Part shown: piece by piece, positions 3 through 8,744 of the stretch
Layout: each line of letters opens with the position of its first letter
How positions within the stretch are numbered: position 1 is the first letter of the stretch
NCBI GenBank assembly: GCA_002238865.1
Contig: MPNE01000025.1
Coordinates: 1 to 60,660 of the forward strand
Length of the DNA stretch: 60,660 nt
Origin: Gemmatimonadetes bacterium bin94
Lineage (GTDB): Bacteria > Gemmatimonadota > Gemmatimonadetes > Longimicrobiales > Gaopeijiaceae
Direction of reading: 5' to 3'
Position numbers and translations under genes: made by a program
The notes under the pieces: generated by a model
The model's input: the letters and a program-made list of their open reading frames with translations, nothing else
The model's database searches: none
What the model was told of the DNA's origin: nothing

Positions 3-290
3 ATCGAGCGCTGCGCCGACGACCTCGAAGCCACCCTCGTCGAGAGGGACGAGACCACGTTCTCGCTGGTCGAGGCCGCCCGCGAGAGCGGATACACCGC
101 CACCCACCTCGGAAGGCTCGTCCGCGACGGCAAGATCCCCAACGCCGGGCGGCCCAACGCGCCCAGGATCGCCCGCAGGCACCTGCCCCGAAAAGCGCCG
201 GCCGAACCGCCACTTGCGGAAGAACCCGGCCCGCGCGAGCGTTCGAACACGCAGATCGTGCAGTCCATCATCCAGAGAGGAATGGAATGA
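3..290 (+). CDS. excisionase-like HTH DNA-binding protein, 5' end cut off by window edge
   Basis: The frame is open from the first bases of the window and stops at 288-290, giving 95 visible residues without a start. The middle reads as a MerR/HTH_17-like helix-turn-helix (around SLVEAARESGYTATHLGRLV) followed by a basic stretch RDGKIPNAGRPNAPRI, the arrangement used by excisionases and small phage-type regulators. The tail is Pro/Glu-rich and probably disordered. Its TGA overlaps the ATG of the integrase gene (ATGA), so the two are translationally coupled, as expected for a xis-int pair. A role as recombination directionality factor is inferred from this context; a plain regulator of the element is the alternative. 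Confidence 0.6.
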   Translation: MERCADDLEATLVERDETTFSLVEAARESGYTATHLGRLVRDGKIPNAGRPNAPRIARRHLPRKAPAEPPLAEEPGPRERSNTQIVQSIIQRGME

Positions 291-1450
291 TGGCACGCAC
301 GAAACGAAGTCGGCGCGCATACAGCGCCGGAGAATGGGGCCGCAACCGGGTCAGGGTGTTCCCGGATCCGAAAACCGGCCTCTACCAGGTAGAGTGGCGG
401 GAGAACGGGCGCAGGCTCACCCGGTCCCTCAAACACCGCGACTGGTCGCGGGCAAAGCGGCAGGCCGACGAGTTCGCCGCTGGGTTCGCGGGGCCGGAGC
501 TGAACGGCAAGAAGGACGCCGAGCCCGAGCCGCTCACCCTGGGGACGCTGTTTGACATTTACGGTGAAGAGGTGACGCCCACCAAGGCGAAGCGGACCCA
601 AACGCGCGACCGGTACTCGACCGAGATGTTTCTCGGGTTCTTCGGACGGGACCGCAGGCCCGAAACCCTCTCTCAGCGCGACTGGGACCGGTTCATCCGG
701 GAGCGGCGCGCCGGCAGGGTCGGGGCGTCGGGCCAGCCGGTGCGCAACCGGACAATCGAATGGGACCTGACGTTCCTGATGGCGGTGCTCAATTGGGCCG
801 CGAGGTCGCGGGACGAGCGGGGACGCCTGCTCCTCGACAGGAATCCGCTCAAGGGCCTCAGGAAGCCCACGGCGAAGAACCCCGCAAGGGTCCTCCTGAC
901 CGAGGAGGAGTACCGTGCGATGCTCGGGGTTTCCCGGCAGGTCAACTGGCGATTCCGCGTCGCCCTCGTGCTCGCGCACGAGACCGGACACAGGATCGGT
1001 GCCATCCGCCAGCTTCGGTGGAGCGACATCGACTTCGAGGGCAGGACCATCCGGTGGAGGGCCGAGCACGAGAAGACGGGCTACGAGCACGTCACACCGA
1101 TGACGGACGAGGCCGTCGCCGCCTTGGAGGAGGCGCGGCGGATGACCGCCGCCACGGGAGACAATCCGGTGCTGCCCGCCGGGACGGACCCTTCCCGGTG
1201 CATGGACAGCTCTTGGGCGTACCGCTTCTGGTGCAGGGCGCAGACGCGCGCGGGCTTGGAGCCCAAGCGCGGGAGAGGCTGGCACTCGCTGAGACGGAAG
1301 TTCGCTAGCGATCTGATGGACCTGCCGCTCAAGGTCTTGTGCCAGCTGGGCGGCTGGAAGAACGCCCACACGGTCCTGCGCTGCTATCAGAGGGCCGACG
1401 AGGGACAACTCAGGGAGGCGCTGGAGAGTCGCCGCAGGGTTCAGGTCTGA
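287..1450 (+). CDS. tyrosine recombinase (phage-type integrase)
   Basis: A 387-residue protein with a basic N-terminal arm-binding region, a SAM-like core-binding domain (about 85-195) and a C-terminal catalytic domain. The full catalytic set is visible: Arg236 (GHRIGAIR), Lys263, His333 and Arg336 (HSLR), Trp357 in the GGW position and the nucleophile Tyr367 (RCYQ). It should cut and rejoin DNA at an attachment site. Two ATG codons (287 and 290) are possible starts; 287 overlaps the stop of the HTH gene. The gene ends about 200 bp before homology to HsdR begins, and the N-terminal two thirds of hsdR are missing, so this element probably entered or rearranged the restriction locus. Sequence appears intact. 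Confidence 0.9.
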   Translation: MMARTKRSRRAYSAGEWGRNRVRVFPDPKTGLYQVEWRENGRRLTRSLKHRDWSRAKRQADEFAAGFAGPELNGKKDAEPEPLTLGTLFDIYGEEVTPTKAKRTQTRDRYSTEMFLGFFGRDRRPETLSQRDWDRFIRERRAGRVGASGQPVRNRTIEWDLTFLMAVLNWAARSRDERGRLLLDRNPLKGLRKPTAKNPARVLLTEEEYRAMLGVSRQVNWRFRVALVLAHETGHRIGAIRQLRWSDIDFEGRTIRWRAEHEKTGYEHVTPMTDEAVAALEEARRMTAATGDNPVLPAGTDPSRCMDSSWAYRFWCRAQTRAGLEPKRGRGWHSLRRKFASDLMDLPLKVLCQLGGWKNAHTVLRCYQRADEGQLREALESRRRVQV

Positions 1451-1534
1451 GAATCCCGATCAGCGGGAATCAAACAGCGAGAACCGGCTCGACGAAACCC
1501 ATAAGTAACACGGGTACAAACAGATACGAATCTG

Positions 1535-2713
1535 GTGCCGTCCGCTGGTAACCTCTTCCATGTGGATGCCTCCTCCCTCAGATGGTCGACTCAGTCGCTT
1601 CAGTACCATCTTGGCACATTGCGATGCCGCCGGGAGGGGGCGTCCACTCCATCGCACTTCGTGATCGTGGACGCGGTCGGCGTGTGCGAGCGCGACAAAA
1701 CGGTTTCACCGACCCTGGAGCGCAAGCCATCGGTCAGTACAAAGAAGCTCCTGCAGATGGTGGCGATGGGAATCGTGCACGCCGACCTGGTGTCGAGCCT
1801 AGCTTCGCGGCTGGCGCGGCTTGGCAGGCAGGTAGACGGGGCGCAGGCGGCGCGGATCGCGGGGGAGGCGGGCGGGGACACCCTGGCCGAACTGACCGGC
1901 CGACTGATCGCGAGCATCGACCCGCAAGCGACGCACGACGCGACGGTTCAGCGGTACGGGTTGGACGAGGGCGACGATCCGACCCCGGAGCAGCTGGACG
2001 AGACCGAGCGCGAGCGTATGACCGAAGCGCTCAAGCCGTTCAGCCGACCGGAGCTCAGGCAGGCCATCGTCGAGGTCGCCCGGAGCGTCTACCAGATTAT
2101 CGACGAGGCTTCCCTCGACGTGCTGCTGGATTTCGGGCACAGCGAGGCTGCGGTCCGGAGCGCCCGCTCGAAGCTGTACGACTTCCAACGGTTCCTCGAT
2201 GAGAACAGGGACGACATCGAGGCGCTCCAGATCCTGTACAGCCGCCCCTACCGCGCCGGGCTCCGGTACCGCCACCTCAAGGAGCTTCGGGACGCGCTAC
2301 GGAACCCGCCGGTCGGACTTCACGACCCCGCCAACGGACTCTGGCGGCTTTTCGAGGCGCTGGAGCCGGAAAACGTTGTGGGGCGGGGCGGCACGGCGCT
2401 CGTGGATCTGGTGGCGATAGTGAGGCATGCGATCCGGCCCGAAGGGAGGTTAGTTCCGATGGCCGACCAAGTGGAGAGGCGCTACCGGGAGTGGCTGGAG
2501 GAGAAGGCGCGCGGCGGGCAGGAGTTCACGGCGGAGCAGCGGCGGTGGCTGGACGCGATTAAGGACCACATCGCCTCCAGCCTGGCGATCGAGCAGGCGG
2601 ACTTCGAAGACGTGCCGTTCAACCAGTGGGGGGGTCTTGGTGGGGCGTGGCGGGTGTTTGGCGGGGATATCGATGCGGTACTGGATGAGTTGAACCAGAG
2701 GTTGGCGGCGTGA
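1535..2713 (+). pseudogene. hsdR: hsdR 3' fragment: C-terminal domain of type I restriction subunit R
   Basis: From about base 1655 to the stop the protein matches the end of EcoEI-type HsdR: HFVIVDAVGV, a LERKPSV motif, the SSLASRLARL helix, and the terminal domain with RRWLDAIKDHIASSL and PFNQWGGLGGAW. An intact HsdR is roughly 800-1100 residues with a PD-(D/E)XK nuclease and SF2 helicase motor. None of that is present here, so at most about 350 HsdR residues remain. The GTG at 1535 is only the first available start; residues before ~1655 do not look like HsdR. The stop overlaps the GTG of hsdS (GTGA). As it stands it cannot restrict DNA. It may still be made and interact with HsdM/HsdS, but a decayed gene is more likely. 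Confidence 0.8.
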
Positions 2714-4224
2714 AGATACCCACGGGATGGGAACGCTGCGAGATCTCGCAGGTGCTTGCCACACAGGATAATGGAAAGCTACTGAAGCAGGGCTGGAGCC
2801 CAAAGTGCGAAAAGCACCCGGCACCCACGGATTCCGATTGGGGTGTCCTGAAGACCACGTCCATTCAGAGCGGCGCGTTTCTGGCCGAACACAACAAGGC
2901 TCTTCCAGATTCCCTTCACCCGAAGCCGGGTCTTGAGGTCGCCGCCGGTGACTTGCTACTGACGTGTGCTGGTCCCCGATCACGGTGCGGAATCCCGTGT
3001 CTGGTGCGGAGTACGAGGCCCCGCTTGATGGTATCGGGCAAGATGTACAAGATGCGGGCGTCACGCCAGGTGCTCCCTGCCTTTGCCGAAGCTTGGCTGC
3101 TCACGTCGGAAGCTCAACAGGCTGTTGACCGAATGAAGACCGGAGGATCCGACAGCGGACTCAACTTGACGCAGGGTAGGTTTCTTCGCCTGCCGTTTCC
3201 CTTAGCTCCGCTCCCCGAACAAGGCCGCATAGTCGCCAAGATGGAGTCCCTGTTCGCCGGACTGGACGAGGGTCTCGCGGCGCTCAACCGCGCGCGGGCT
3301 AACCTTGAGCGCTACCGGGCATCGGTCCTCAAGGCAGCGGTCGAGGGTAGACTAACCGGCGGATGGAGGGCGGAGAACCCGCCCGAGGAAAGCGGCGAAT
3401 TGTTGCTGGCCCGGATCGCAACAACGGACGTGGATAGCTGCGGGCCACCCTTCGGCCGAAGGCATGACGACCTTCCGAACGGATGGGGCAAGGCCCCGGT
3501 GGCAGCACTAATCCGGGAGCCCCTGAGAAACGGCAAATCGGCCAGAGCCTCAAGCGACGGCCAGGGAGTGCGTACGTTGACTCTCTCGGCAGTAACGGAA
3601 GGAGACTTTTCGCAACGCAACACGAAGTTGACCACTGTCGCTCCCAACAAGGTGAGTTCCTTATGGCTCGAGGCTGAGGACATTCTTGTCGAGAGATCGA
3701 ACACACCCGAACTAGTGGGTCTCGCTCGCATGTATTGTGGACCGGCGAACTACGCAATATTCCCCGACCTATTGATACGAGTTCGCTGTGACCAACGTAT
3801 CTCGGCAGCATTCGTAGAATTCTGCTTACAATCGCCTGAGGCTCGTTCGTATTTTCGCAGCCGAGCGAGGGGGAGTTCCGGAAGCATGCCCAAGATCAAT
3901 CAGACAACCGTCGCCGAATTGACACTACCTCTCCCTCCTCGCACGGAGCAAGACGAGGTTGTGGCACGTTGCCGTAACCTTTTGTCTGAAGCGGACGTGT
4001 TGCAACGCGAGTTAGCGATGGCTAGTCGGAGAGTCGGATCGCTCCGCCAATCCATCCTCACACGCGCTTTCGAGGGCCGTCTGGTCCCTCAAGATCCCGA
4101 AGACGAGGCCGCTTCCGTCATCCTTGAGCGGATCCGAGCGGAACGCAAAGCGGAAAAGACGAGGAGACAGAGACAGTCCCGGCTCACAAAACTGAACCGC
4201 GAGCGACAAGACGGGGACTCTTGA
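2710..4224 (+). CDS. hsdS: type I restriction-modification specificity subunit HsdS
   Basis: A 504-residue two-domain specificity subunit. Target-recognition domain 1 spans about 1-165. The first conserved helical spacer follows (LPEQGRIVAKMESLFAGLD, then RASVLKAAVEGRL). TRD2 covers about 250-420, and the second spacer ends the protein (RTEQDEVVARCRNLL, SILTRAFEGRLVPQ). The two TRDs recognise the halves of a bipartite DNA site and the spacers set their distance and bind HsdM. The GTG start overlaps the hsdR' stop and the stop overlaps hsdM, so the genes are coupled. DNA under TRD2 (about 3600-3990) is visibly richer in A/T than its surroundings, consistent with exchange of this domain. Confidence 0.92.
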   Translation: MKIPTGWERCEISQVLATQDNGKLLKQGWSPKCEKHPAPTDSDWGVLKTTSIQSGAFLAEHNKALPDSLHPKPGLEVAAGDLLLTCAGPRSRCGIPCLVRSTRPRLMVSGKMYKMRASRQVLPAFAEAWLLTSEAQQAVDRMKTGGSDSGLNLTQGRFLRLPFPLAPLPEQGRIVAKMESLFAGLDEGLAALNRARANLERYRASVLKAAVEGRLTGGWRAENPPEESGELLLARIATTDVDSCGPPFGRRHDDLPNGWGKAPVAALIREPLRNGKSARASSDGQGVRTLTLSAVTEGDFSQRNTKLTTVAPNKVSSLWLEAEDILVERSNTPELVGLARMYCGPANYAIFPDLLIRVRCDQRISAAFVEFCLQSPEARSYFRSRARGSSGSMPKINQTTVAELTLPLPPRTEQDEVVARCRNLLSEADVLQRELAMASRRVGSLRQSILTRAFEGRLVPQDPEDEAASVILERIRAERKAEKTRRQRQSRLTKLNRERQDGDS

Positions 4225-5732
4225 TGCCGACCAACCACACCCAGCAGATCGTCAACAAAGCGTGGAGCTTTGCCCATGTCCTTCGCGACGACGGTCTGTC
4301 CTACATGGCCTACACCGAGCAGATCACCTTTCTACTCTTTCTGAAGATGTCCCACGAACTGACCCAGCCGCCGTGGGGCCGTGATCCCCTCGTGCCGAAG
4401 GGACTAGACTGGCCCAGTCTCCTCGTCCGCGACGGCGAGGAATTGGAGGCACACTACCGGCGGATCCTGAGAGATCTTCCGAAAAACGGTGGGATGCTGG
4501 GGGAGATCTTCAAGAAGGCTCGACAAGAGATCCAAAACCCGTCGACCCTCAAGCGCTTGATCGTAGATCTGATCGACCCCGAGGACTGGATGTCGATGGA
4601 CGCCGACGTAAAGGGCGACATCTACGAGGGCTTGCTGGCCAAGTCTGCCCAGGAATCGCCGAAGGGAGCTGGCCAGTACTTCACGCCCCGCGTGTTGATC
4701 AAGGCCATCGTGGATGTTATGCAACCGGGACCGGAGGACACCGTTTGCGACCCCGCCTGCGGTACCGGCGGTTTCCTCCTCGCCGCGCATGACCATGTCG
4801 TCCGCAAGCACGGAAGCACGCTGGATCCCGACCAGAAGCGTCACCTGCGGGAGAGGTTCGTCCAAGGAGGGGAACTCGTTCCCGCAACCGCCCGGCTCTG
4901 CATCATGAACCTCTATCTTCACGGCATAAGCCCGGATCGGTCCCCGATCCACTCCGGTGTCGACAGTCTAGCCAACGATCCGGGCGACCGCTTCTCAATG
5001 GTGCTCACCAACCCCCCATTCGGCAAGAAGAGCAGCTTTCGGATAGTGAATGAGGAGGGTGAGATGGAGACGGAGTCCCACGTATACGAACGGCAGGACT
5101 TTTGGACCAGCACCAAGAACAAGCAACTGAACTTTCTCCAGCATGTGAAGACGCTACTCAGGGTACACGGTTCGTGCGCGATCGTCGTGCCGGATAACGT
5201 CCTGTTCGAAGACGGCGCGGGTGAGACCGTGCGGCGCAATCTCCTGCAGCAATTCGATGTCCACACACTGCTACGACTTCCCACTGGTATCTTCTACAAG
5301 CCAGGAGTCAAGGCGAACGTCCTGTTCTTCGACGCGAAGCCCGCGCGAGAGCAGCCTTGGACCGAGCGGCTCTGGGTATACGACCTCCGTACCAACAAAC
5401 ACTTCACACTTAAGTTGAAGCCGCTCCGGCGGGAGGACTTGAATGACTTCGTCGCCTGCTACCGGCCGGACGAGCGCCACAATAGGCAGCCAACGTGGAG
5501 CCCGGACAACGAGAGCGGCCGCTGGCGAGCGTTCGAGTACGACGAACTGACCAACCGCGACAAGCTGAACCTCGACCTCCTGTGGATCAAGGACAGCGCG
5601 CTGAAGGAGAGCGAAAACCTGCCGGAGCCTGAGGCCCTAGCTGGCGCAATCGTGGAAGACCTGCACGCGGCGCTGGAGGCGTTTCGGATCATTGCAGAGG
5701 AGCTTGAGTCGACGAGGGGTGGTATGGCATGA
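4224..5732 (+). CDS. hsdM: type I restriction-modification N6-adenine methyltransferase HsdM
   Basis: A 502-residue protein with the HsdM N-terminal helical domain and an N6_Mtase domain. The S-adenosylmethionine-binding motif DPACGTGG is at about 176-183, QYFTPR precedes it, and the catalytic NPPF tetrapeptide is at about 263-266. With HsdS it should methylate adenine at the bipartite site. I chose ATG 4224, which overlaps the last base of hsdS (TGATG); a TTG at 4221 is also in frame. The gene order R'-S-M differs from the common R-M-S. With hsdR truncated, the locus should act as a methylation-only (orphan) system unless an HsdR is encoded elsewhere. Confidence 0.93.
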   Translation: MPTNHTQQIVNKAWSFAHVLRDDGLSYMAYTEQITFLLFLKMSHELTQPPWGRDPLVPKGLDWPSLLVRDGEELEAHYRRILRDLPKNGGMLGEIFKKARQEIQNPSTLKRLIVDLIDPEDWMSMDADVKGDIYEGLLAKSAQESPKGAGQYFTPRVLIKAIVDVMQPGPEDTVCDPACGTGGFLLAAHDHVVRKHGSTLDPDQKRHLRERFVQGGELVPATARLCIMNLYLHGISPDRSPIHSGVDSLANDPGDRFSMVLTNPPFGKKSSFRIVNEEGEMETESHVYERQDFWTSTKNKQLNFLQHVKTLLRVHGSCAIVVPDNVLFEDGAGETVRRNLLQQFDVHTLLRLPTGIFYKPGVKANVLFFDAKPAREQPWTERLWVYDLRTNKHFTLKLKPLRREDLNDFVACYRPDERHNRQPTWSPDNESGRWRAFEYDELTNRDKLNLDLLWIKDSALKESENLPEPEALAGAIVEDLHAALEAFRIIAEELESTRGGMA

Positions 5733-5773: not shown

Positions 5774-7042
5774 TTAGCCCTCCCGGTCCGAGAAGCGTTC
5801 AAGCGCCGCCCCCGCATCGGTGAGCACGTACTTCTGGGTCGGCGCTCGTGGATTGCCTGGGTTCGTCATGCGGACCAGCCCGGTCTCCAGTAGCGGCTTC
5901 AGATGTTTCCGGCGAAAATGGGAGCGATGCGAAACGCCCGCCCGCTCCATCAGCTGGGCCAAGCTCTGCGGAACATCGCACGCCTGCACAATGGCGCGTT
6001 GGCGAGTGGTCAGCCGGCGCGCAGCCTGGTCACCGCCCATGTCGGCACGGACTTGGTCACCATGGTCACTGCCCATGTCCGCACGGGGCAGGTCCACGGG
6101 ACGGTCGCCGACCGCCCGACCATCGACTCGTTCCGCACCCGTCCCCACCGTCGGCCGCCGTTCCTCGCCCGGCGCCCCCTCCCCCAGCAGGGACAGCTCG
6201 TACTCGCTGCGGGCCTCGTCGCTGCGGATCACGGGAGGGGCATGGCCGAGACCCTGCCAGTTCTTGAAGATGGCCCGGATTCCGGTGCCCGCCTGCCTGG
6301 CGAGGCCGATGCCACGGAACGCTGCCGCGATCAACGGGTTGCGCACATCCTTCGCCGCCCGGTCAAGCAGTTCGCCGGCCGGGGCGCCGGGATCCCCCGG
6401 GTTCCAGAACACCGTCCGGTCGCGATAGAAGCGGATGAATGCCGTGCGCCCGCGATCGCCGTAGTCCTGGTGGATCAGCTGGTTGACGAAAGCCTCCCGA
6501 AAGGACTCGTACCCAGGCGGATCGTCGTCGCGGCGCATGGTCTGCATGTCGAGGCGGAATGGGCGCTCCGCATGCCGCATGTAGCGTTCGGCAACGATCA
6601 GCCAGGCCTGAAGCAGGTTGTCCTCGACGACGATGCGGTCGGTCCAGTGGTGTTCGGGCGGCCCCTCCTCGTAGGCGGCACCGATGAACTGGCAGTCGAC
6701 TACCGGGCGGGACAGCGCCTGCCGAACGTAGCGCGGCCTGCCGAAGACGAGCACCGCCGCCCGCGTCGGCGCCAGCCGGTCACCGGACTCGACCACCAAT
6801 CCCCGATCGTGCAGGAACTCCACATCGCCGAGATCCTGCCCCTCGCCGGGACTGCGGTCGGAGAAGAGTGACCGGTACCAGCGCACCGACGGGGGATGGA
6901 AGAATCGGTGCGCCTGCAGCTCCTCTAGGACCTCGCCGTCGTACCGGCCTGGAGCGCCATCCTGTGGGAAGCTCTTCTCGCCGCTGTCGGCGTCTGGCAA
7001 CCCGTGTCGCTCCTTTCGGTCTGAAGCCTCCTCGCGATTCAT
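5774..7042 (-). CDS. RecG/AlbA-family ATP-binding regulator lacking the AlbA_2 domain
   Basis: A 422-residue protein resembling the C-terminal part of the 'AlbA_2 plus HATPase' family often annotated as RecG-like helicase or transcriptional regulator. Visible are the linker segment (TRAAVLVFGRP), the FREAFVNQLIHQDYGDRGR block typical of the ATP-binding domain, the GIGLARQAGTGI glycine motif, a low-complexity run with two RADMGxD repeats, and a C-terminal winged helix (TTRQRAIV to TQKYVLT). The Schlafen/AlbA_2 domain expected at the N terminus is absent. ATG 7042 is preceded by an AGGGGG ribosome site; a longer start at 7114 would add residues without similarity. It converges on hsdM and is a frequent neighbour of type I RM loci. 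It probably regulates itself or the locus. Confidence 0.65.
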   Translation of the reverse strand: MNREEASDRKERHGLPDADSGEKSFPQDGAPGRYDGEVLEELQAHRFFHPPSVRWYRSLFSDRSPGEGQDLGDVEFLHDRGLVVESGDRLAPTRAAVLVFGRPRYVRQALSRPVVDCQFIGAAYEEGPPEHHWTDRIVVEDNLLQAWLIVAERYMRHAERPFRLDMQTMRRDDDPPGYESFREAFVNQLIHQDYGDRGRTAFIRFYRDRTVFWNPGDPGAPAGELLDRAAKDVRNPLIAAAFRGIGLARQAGTGIRAIFKNWQGLGHAPPVIRSDEARSEYELSLLGEGAPGEERRPTVGTGAERVDGRAVGDRPVDLPRADMGSDHGDQVRADMGGDQAARRLTTRQRAIVQACDVPQSLAQLMERAGVSHRSHFRRKHLKPLLETGLVRMTNPGNPRAPTQKYVLTDAGAALERFSDREG

Positions 7043-7379
7043 GTCCCCCTGCTCCACTGGTGTCCGTTGGTGCAACCCTGGGCGAAAAGTGACCAAGTGG
7101 CCGACGGGCCGCAACAGCTTGGTCAGTGACCAAGTAGTTCCTCGCTGTGCTCAAGCGGGCAAAGACAACTGACCACGAAGCCCTCGTCAACGACACCGTC
7201 CGACATGACTTCCCCGACCAGCGAACCGCTGCCCCACTCTCAGGTATTGCTGGTGGTCGCCAAGCGCGTCGTCTGGTTGAAGCGCCGCCGGCGACGCCGA
7301 TCGACGCTGCCAACCTGGAGCACCGGGAGTAGCGCGAGGGGGAGGCGTGCGAGGACAATAACCGGAATCCGGCATTGGC
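7043..7379. other. intergenic region between two minus-strand accessory genes
   Basis: About 337 bp without a convincing gene. It holds a perfect inverted repeat at 7118-7134 with a matching half-site at 7089-7098, which I take as the control region of the minus-strand gene starting at 7042. The remainder has short open frames on both strands with no recognisable domain and no good ribosome site; it may contain decayed sequence. Confidence 0.5.
7118..7134. promoter_or_regulatory. palindromic operator candidate
   Basis: CTTGGTCAGTGACCAAG is a perfect inverted repeat with 8-base arms around one central base. A second copy of one arm in direct orientation (AGTGACCAAGT) lies 36 bp to the left at 7089. 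The pair sits 50-90 bp upstream of the ATG of the minus-strand ATP-binding regulator, where its promoter should be. It could be bound by the winged helix of that protein (autoregulation) or by another repressor; the binding protein is inferred, the symmetry is seen. Confidence 0.5.
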
Positions 7380-8615
7380 TCACCCCTCGGCACGTAGCCT
7401 GCGCCGACATTCCGGATACAACCTGCTGACGAGACGATTGAACCGCTCGCGCACCCACTCGACGGATTCGTCAAAGTCCTGGATCGCCGCTCCATCGGTG
7501 AACTCTGCCTTGCGCCAGAATCCCAATCTTGGACGGCCCTGGGAAGACCATTCCTGCCAACCATGCAGCCCTATTTCCTGCTGCTCGTCGTCTTCCAGCT
7601 GCATGTCAGCCCTCAAGGCACGAATGATTTCGTCAAACACGCGCTCGGCTTCCGGCTCGCCTTTTCTCCTCGACAGATAAGCGCCCATTGTGCGCTTGTT
7701 TCGATCCAAGAAGGCCATGAGCGAGAGACCCCAGCCTCCATGTCCCGATCCTTCAACCTTCACCCAGATGTAACTGTATCCCGAAGGCACCGGTGTCTCG
7801 GACTTGGTATCGTCAAAAGCGAAGTCTCTCAGCACGGCCATCCAGAATCGCTCGTTCTCGTCTTCAACCGGCGTTGGCTCATGCTCCTCAATGGGGTCTT
7901 CGTCGGTCTCCTCCAGAACCGTCTTGCGAACGAGGATCGTGCGGGGCACGAGCTCGGTCTGTGCCAGGACGCGCGGCTGGATGATCACATCGCCTTCTCC
8001 GCTGTCCCCACGACGAAAGATTGCCGCCTCGACGAGCGCAAGATTGAACCGGAGACCGCTGTGCTCTTGCACGTAAGAGACGATGTCCTCGACCCCTTCA
8101 CGGATGCCGTCGCCAATGATCAGCAGCAGGAACTCGCCACACTTGAGGTTGCGGGCGACGCGGTCGACGAAGAGCTGCTCCTGCATATCGCTGTGCGCTT
8201 CGGAGACCATGTCGAATGGCGACCGAGCGGTGCACTGTCGGACCTCCCGTTCGAGGTCGTCGTAGGTCCACGAAGCCAAGACTCGGGCATAGTCGAGGAT
8301 CTGGCCGATCACCTCACGGCGTGCATCAGGATTCTTCCAGAGCTTGAACTCGGCGAGGATGACCTTGCCGGTCGGTGTCAGGTACAGCGCATCGACGGAC
8401 CCGGCGCGCGTCCCGAGCTCCATGCAGATTGGAACCGCGTCCTCATACGCGGGGTCAATCTCACCAAGTGGCAGGCAGTCCGCGTGCCGGAACAGCAGTT
8501 CTTGCAAGCGGGCTTCGTCAATCGAACCCTCACCTCCGGCGGACGCAATGGGAACGCGTTCCCAGGTACTCCTGGCGGTTAGGTCACCGCGCAGTAAGAT
8601 GAGATTCCCGTACAT
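7380..8615 (-). CDS. PD-(D/E)XK nuclease-like protein with DUF4268-like C-terminal region
   Basis: A 411-residue protein. Its N-terminal third carries a PD-(D/E)XK-type signature: Glu39 in the first helix, Asp75 (GSVDALYL), Glu89-Phe-Lys91 (LAEFKLW) and a following helix with Gln105 (IGQILDYA). That spacing and order fit the restriction-endonuclease fold. The C-terminal half (from ERFWMAVL) resembles the DUF4268 type found in predicted DNA-binding or nuclease proteins. ATG 8615 is fixed by a GGAGG ribosome site seven bases upstream on the minus strand; the frame runs 19 codons further up but without support. It lies next to a damaged type I RM locus, which makes a defence or DNA-processing role likely. 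Substrate unknown. Confidence 0.6.
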
Positions 8616-8744
8616 ATTCCGCCTCCGATTCGAGATTCCCGCTTCGGGTGCGAATCTTACCGCCACCCTCATTGCTTGCGCACCTGCGCACCCCTTGCCA
8701 TTCTGTCCCCCCTACCCACCACTCCACACCCCCTGGAGGTGCCC

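What the first reader, a model, noticed from the sequence alone, without database searches (positions are those of the whole stretch)
287..2713. Integrase element sits exactly where the 5' two thirds of hsdR are missing
A complete tyrosine recombinase with its coupled xis-like gene ends at 1450, and HsdR homology starts abruptly at about 1655 with the C-terminal domain only. The simplest reading is that the element integrated into hsdR, or excised imprecisely from it, leaving a methylation-only HsdS/HsdM pair. A target site within a restriction gene would make integration disarm host defence.
Basis: partly seen in the sequence, partly recalled or inferred. Interest (0 to 1): 0.62.

Follow-up and report, generated by a model that had tools for sequence, protein, structure and literature searches.

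The report
Nested mobile elements split restriction gene
A restriction enzyme gene in a sponge-symbiont bacterium was cut in two by a transposon, and a second mobile element then inserted into that transposon; the "missing" front half of the gene is intact on another piece of the same genome, so this is an ordinary layered insertion and not an element that aims at restriction genes.

Summary
In detail: an intact tyrosine recombinase with a coupled xis-like gene ends at 1450, and HsdR homology starts abruptly at 1653 with codon 581 of 932. The missing hsdR part exists: contig C4 of the same genome encodes HsdR residues 1-580 and stops exactly where the window part begins; joined, the halves give a gap-free 932-aa HsdR. 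What split hsdR is not the integrase but an IS110-family insertion sequence: its transposase follows the C4 half and runs to the end of C4, and its other end is window 1546-1654, a repeat that is continuous with the transposase in sister IS copies. The integrase element sits inside that IS, at the 7-bp sequence TGGTAAC (1546-1552) over the transposase start codon; closely related elements in sister genomes have the same TGGTAAC at both ends. So the order is hsdR <- IS110 <- integrase element, and the att site lies in a transposase gene, not in hsdR. Complete relatives place the C4 and window flanks side by side. hsdS and hsdM are open, so methylation without restriction is likely. The far end of the element is not assembled. 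This integrase family is multi-copy and often sits inside other mobile genes.

The parts
3..290 (+). xis-like small HTH ORF, 5' end cut by the contig start, overlaps the integrase start codon (ATGA)
   Evidence: no family hit; the region upstream of int also aligns next to sister integrases (window 3-6 onward in L101, L102)
287..1450 (+). intact tyrosine recombinase (integrase), one of about 20 family copies in this genome
1462..1485 (+). two direct repeats AGCGGGAATC / AGCGAGAACC, 14 bp apart, downstream of int: putative arm-type integrase sites
   Evidence: similar pairs follow nearly every integrase copy; function inferred
1521..1552 (+). core attachment site; right end of the integrase element is ..TGCCGTCCGC (to 1545) followed by the 7-bp overlap TGGTAAC (1546-1552)
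   Evidence: similar end and the same 7 bp in sister elements with both ends found (L099/L125, L103/L131)
1546..1654 (-). 5' end (transposase start region plus non-coding end) of an IS110-family insertion sequence whose transposase lies at the end of contig C4
   Evidence: repeat in own and sister genomes; continuous with the transposase start in sister copies
1653..2713 (+). 3' part of hsdR, codons 581-932 (CG at 1653-1654 shared by IS end and target)
2710..4224 (+). hsdS, open
4221..5732 (+). hsdM, open

Best explanation
A type I R-M operon (hsdR-hsdS-hsdM) in a variable defence locus was first split when an IS110-family element (about 1.49 kb) inserted at a CG dinucleotide between hsdR codons 580 and 581 (shown by sequence). 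A small integrative element with its own xis-like gene and tyrosine recombinase then integrated into that IS at TGGTAAC over the transposase start codon, by strand exchange in the 7-bp overlap (shown: one full junction and the exact overlap on the other side; inferred: the event and its order). Consequence, inferred: HsdR's nuclease/motor part (contig C4) is separated from its C-terminal EcoEI_R_C domain (window), restriction is lost, and HsdS/HsdM may still methylate. The integrase neither recognises nor targets hsdR.
For: HsdR aa 1-580 are encoded at G000:C4 from 157532 (match 157532-159265), the only full-length match in the genome; the window carries the only C-terminal half. Joined at CG the halves give 932 aa, no stop, no gap, 83% identity to a full-length sister HsdR. 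An IS110 transposase gene (PF01548, PF02371) follows the C4 half and reaches the contig's last base, which ends in TGGTAAC. Sister IS copies are continuous across this point into the sequence of window 1546-1654. Sister elements with 92% and 84% identical integrases have GCTGGTAAC at both ends. Synteny: C4 flank and window flank lie 686 bp apart in complete genome G001 and on one contig each in G005 and G018. The 7-bp identity rule is as described for tyrosine integrases in PMC10111431.
Against: No read or contig spans C4's end to the window start; the left end of the element (TGGTAAC followed by GCAGACTGC) is not in the assembly, even with 2 mismatches. The genome is a draft of 83 contigs, so a mis-join at the window junction is not formally excluded. 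Expression and activity of any gene here are untested.
Confidence: 0.86

Rival explanations
1. The integrase element integrated directly into hsdR.
For: The integrase lies between the two hsdR halves and next to the 3' half.
Against: 102 bp of IS110 end separate the att overlap from hsdR; the hsdR break coincides with IS ends on both sides (ACG|TATGTGG on C4, CCATCG|CAC in the window), while the att overlap TGGTAAC does not occur at the hsdR break.
Confidence: 0.03
2. The IS110 copy already carried the integrase element and moved into hsdR as one composite unit, mobilised in trans by another IS110 copy.
For: Other IS110 ends exist in the genome, and elements of this family sit in IS110 transposase genes elsewhere (L201, L075).
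Against: The inserted IS has a split transposase gene and would be much longer; no second place with the same IS/integrase junction was seen in this genome. The order of events is not directly testable here.
Confidence: 0.1
3. The window junction is an assembly chimera between an integrase contig and an IS110 end.
For: IS110 and integrase are both multi-copy and many contigs of this genome end in or near them.
Against: The junction falls exactly on the 7-bp overlap defined independently in sister genomes, and C4 stops on the last base of the same 7 bp; seven bases are too few for a typical assembler overlap.
Confidence: 0.06
4. The integrase is a dedicated switch of the R-M locus (phase variation of hsdS or hsdR).
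For: Recombination at type I R-M loci is known to vary them, e.g. PMC6265443 (found, abstract only).
Against: The family gives no support: about 20 copies in this genome lie beside unrelated genes, and the att site and element ends are defined without any hsd gene.
Confidence: 0.02

Closest known systems
[quoted passage not shown]
   Same: Tyrosine integrase; small element integrated inside a gene of another mobile element; att identity of about 7 bp
   Different: Hosts here are IS110, IS21 istB, mobC and integrase genes rather than prophage late genes; copy number per genome is much higher than the one or two elements described there; no helper phage link tested
IMEs integrated in the oriT of ICEs (PMC7563843, seen as a search abstract)
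   Same: Integrative element that uses another mobile element as its integration site
   Different: oriT versus coding sequence; no relaxase was looked for in the window element
IS110-family insertion sequences (PF01548 + PF02371)
   Same: Transposase domains; insertion with only a dinucleotide shared by the two junctions
   Different: This copy is split by the integrase element at its transposase start; guide RNA not examined
Type I R-M with EcoEI-type HsdR
   Same: hsdR-hsdS-hsdM; HSDR_N, ResIII, Helicase_C and EcoEI_R_C domains across the two halves
   Different: hsdR is split and lies on two contigs

Membership tests
Tyrosine-recombinase integrative element | Integrase with the catalytic motifs | tested here: met
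   PF00589; KTG, HSLRR, GGW, CYQ in order
Tyrosine-recombinase integrative element | Short identity block (about 7 bp) at both element ends | tested here: inconclusive
   Right end with TGGTAAC in the window; C4 ends in TGGTAAC; left end of this copy unassembled. Met in 14 related elements with 7-12 bp repeats
Tyrosine-recombinase integrative element | Excision / circular form | not testable with these tools
   needs reads or experiment
IS110 family | DEDD_Tnp_IS110 and Transposase_20 domains | tested here: met
IS110 family | No target duplication beyond a core dinucleotide | tested here: met
   Only CG is shared by the two junctions; hsdR halves join without loss
IS110 family | Bridge RNA in a non-coding end | not tested
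   not examined
Type I restriction-modification, HsdR | Intact hsdR with nuclease, motor and C-terminal domains in one frame | tested here: not met
   Split between C4 and the window by IS110
Type I restriction-modification, HsdM/HsdS | Open hsdM (N6_Mtase) and hsdS | tested here: met
Element that targets restriction genes | att overlap lies in hsdR | tested here: not met
   Overlap lies at the IS110 transposase start; sister elements sit in integrase genes

The most novel reading that the evidence does not exclude
The integrase belongs to an expanded family (2 to 32 or more copies per genome in most members of this sponge-symbiont genus, also in MAGs labelled as other phyla) whose members each carry their own 7-12 bp overlap and are specialised to enter conserved coding motifs of other mobile genes (the catalytic CYQ codons of paralogous integrases, IS110 transposase, IS21 istB, mobC): a lineage of hyperparasites that uses the mobilome itself as its landing ground.
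Probability: 0.3. Interest if true: 0.6.

Novelty: new member of a known kind. Interest (0 to 1): 0.38.

Why it matters
It replaces a tempting story (an element that disarms restriction by its choice of target) with a traceable layered history, and it shows how a contig edge can make a split gene look truncated. If the wider family pattern holds, it gives a natural collection of dozens of related integrases with different overlaps, useful for studying how tyrosine integrases change target.

Tried and rejected
Search for the element's left end in the own assembly by pattern: no match. Reading the 107-bp repeat as a MITE, or as part of the integrase element: rejected once it proved to be the end of a full IS110 element. 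Treating the conserved int 3' sequence as an hsdR att site: rejected, since the overlap is in the IS. G014's hsdR, first taken for a second case of the same short HsdR, is a separate break by an IS1595-type element with its 5' part still present. Relatives in plasmid and phage records: only weak (<60% identity) matches. Target-gene classes of the copies were sampled, not counted against a null. One literature search on IS-broken hsdR gave no direct precedent in the first hits and was not pursued.

Full report
Where the window lies. The window is contig C77 of an 83-contig, 4.42-Mb draft genome and begins at the contig's first base. Named relatives of the integrase come mainly from Gemmatimonadota MAGs, several labelled BD2-11 clade or Candidatus Palauibacter, with further copies in MAGs labelled Gammaproteobacteria, Acidobacteria and Binatia. 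The organism of the window itself is unnamed; 'Palauibacter-like sponge symbiont' is inference from these relatives.

The observation. The integrase, its coupled upstream ORF, and the abrupt HsdR start are all real. Against the 932-aa HsdR of a sister genome (G011, L088) nucleotide similarity starts at window 1653, codon 581.

The missing part. A search of the own genome with HsdR residues 1-578 finds one full-length match, C4:157532-159265, 84% identical; the similarity to HsdR ends at about codon 580 and IS sequence follows. Joining C4 up to ..GACAAGACG with the window from 1655 gives 932 residues, no internal stop, no gap, 83% identity to the sister protein. Nothing of hsdR was lost.

What split hsdR. 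After the C4 half comes a gene on the minus strand with both IS110 transposase domains, starting at the last bases of C4. Its upstream sequence in sister copies is the 107-bp repeat that occupies window 1546-1654. About twenty sister copies read continuously across the point where C4 ends and the window's repeat begins. The joined IS is 1,487 bp and matches sister copies from end to end. The two hsdR junctions share only a CG, which fits what is known of IS110 insertion (established knowledge).

What the integrase did. Conserved sequence follows most integrase copies for about 100 bp and then changes. Sister elements G006:C32, G010:C2 and G020:C124, with 92%, 92% and 84% identical integrases, are inserted in the catalytic-tyrosine codons of another integrase gene; their left ends read TGGTAAC|GCAGACTGCC, and the two-ended cases give GCTGGTAAC at both sides. 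The window has ..TGCCGTCCGC|TGGTAAC|CTCTTCC, and C4 stops at ..CCCGATGA|TGGTAAC. The IS copies of this genome that can be read here (C4, C43, C46) have TGGTAAC exactly, while many sister copies have TGCTAAC. A 7-bp identity block is what tyrosine integrases usually enforce (PMC10111431).

Position in the chromosome. In the complete genome G001 the C4-side flank and the window's cox-gene flank are 686 bp apart in the same orientation with no R-M locus between them. G005 and G018 carry both sides on one contig with other contents; in G018 the sequence equivalent to C4:156863 and that equivalent to window 5802 are about 470 bp apart, so the R-M operon is absent there. C4 next to hsdR holds a CBASS-type set (patatin effector, CD-NTase, E2), so the place is a variable defence locus.

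Mechanism and limits. Shown: two complementary hsdR halves, IS110 at both hsdR junctions, the int-side att end with the subfamily's 7-bp overlap, and synteny. Inferred: order of insertion, loss of restriction, residual methylation. Not seen: the element's left end and its cargo.

The wider family. Fourteen elements with both ends in one locus have 7-12 bp end repeats that mostly differ between elements, and sizes of 3.9-8.4 kb. Restored or flanking targets include an IS110 transposase (L201), mobC/nikA (L020; L181 and L192 similar), a phage-type integrase (L148), an amidohydrolase-like frame (L132, reading only), and istB, GmrSD-C and relaxase sequences beside own copies; others are repeats or chromosomal genes. 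This was a sample, with no statistical test of enrichment. Copy numbers: 20 matches in the own genome and 0 to 32 (the scoring cap) in 22 sister genomes.

Verdict. Observation confirmed; interpretation partly supported; a layered insertion of known kinds, with an interesting integrase family around it.

Noticed in passing
G014:C35 (L086 15118-16977, L087 856-3196, L033): A second hsdR of the same family is split by an IS1595-type transposase (PF12762) with an apparent 8-bp target duplication ATCAAGAA: 2 of 5 close family members in the genus are broken by unrelated ISs.
   Followed up: partly
own genome, about 20 places; G003 and G006 at the 32-copy scoring cap: Unusual multiplication of one integrase family, with overlap sequences that differ between members, in a sponge-symbiont genus.
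   Followed up: partly
L075 (G002:C15), L076/L201 (G022:C38): Two further elements of this family sit inside IS110 transposase genes at other positions.
   Followed up: partly
L098, L099, L100, L101, L103: Elements integrated at the catalytic CYQ codons of paralogous integrase genes, giving tail-to-tail integrase pairs.
   Followed up: partly
L013 4064-6864 (G000:C4:154063-156863): CBASS-type genes (patatin effector, DncV-like cyclase, E2) directly upstream of hsdR.
   Followed up: partly
L098 5997-9167 (-): 1056-aa open frame in a sister element with no Pfam or PADLOC match; may not be a gene.
   Followed up: no
window 5774-8672: Two genes between hsdM and the cox cluster (HATPase_c_4/Fic-like_C; weak PDC-S11); the first recurs at this site in sister genomes without the R-M operon.
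   Followed up: no
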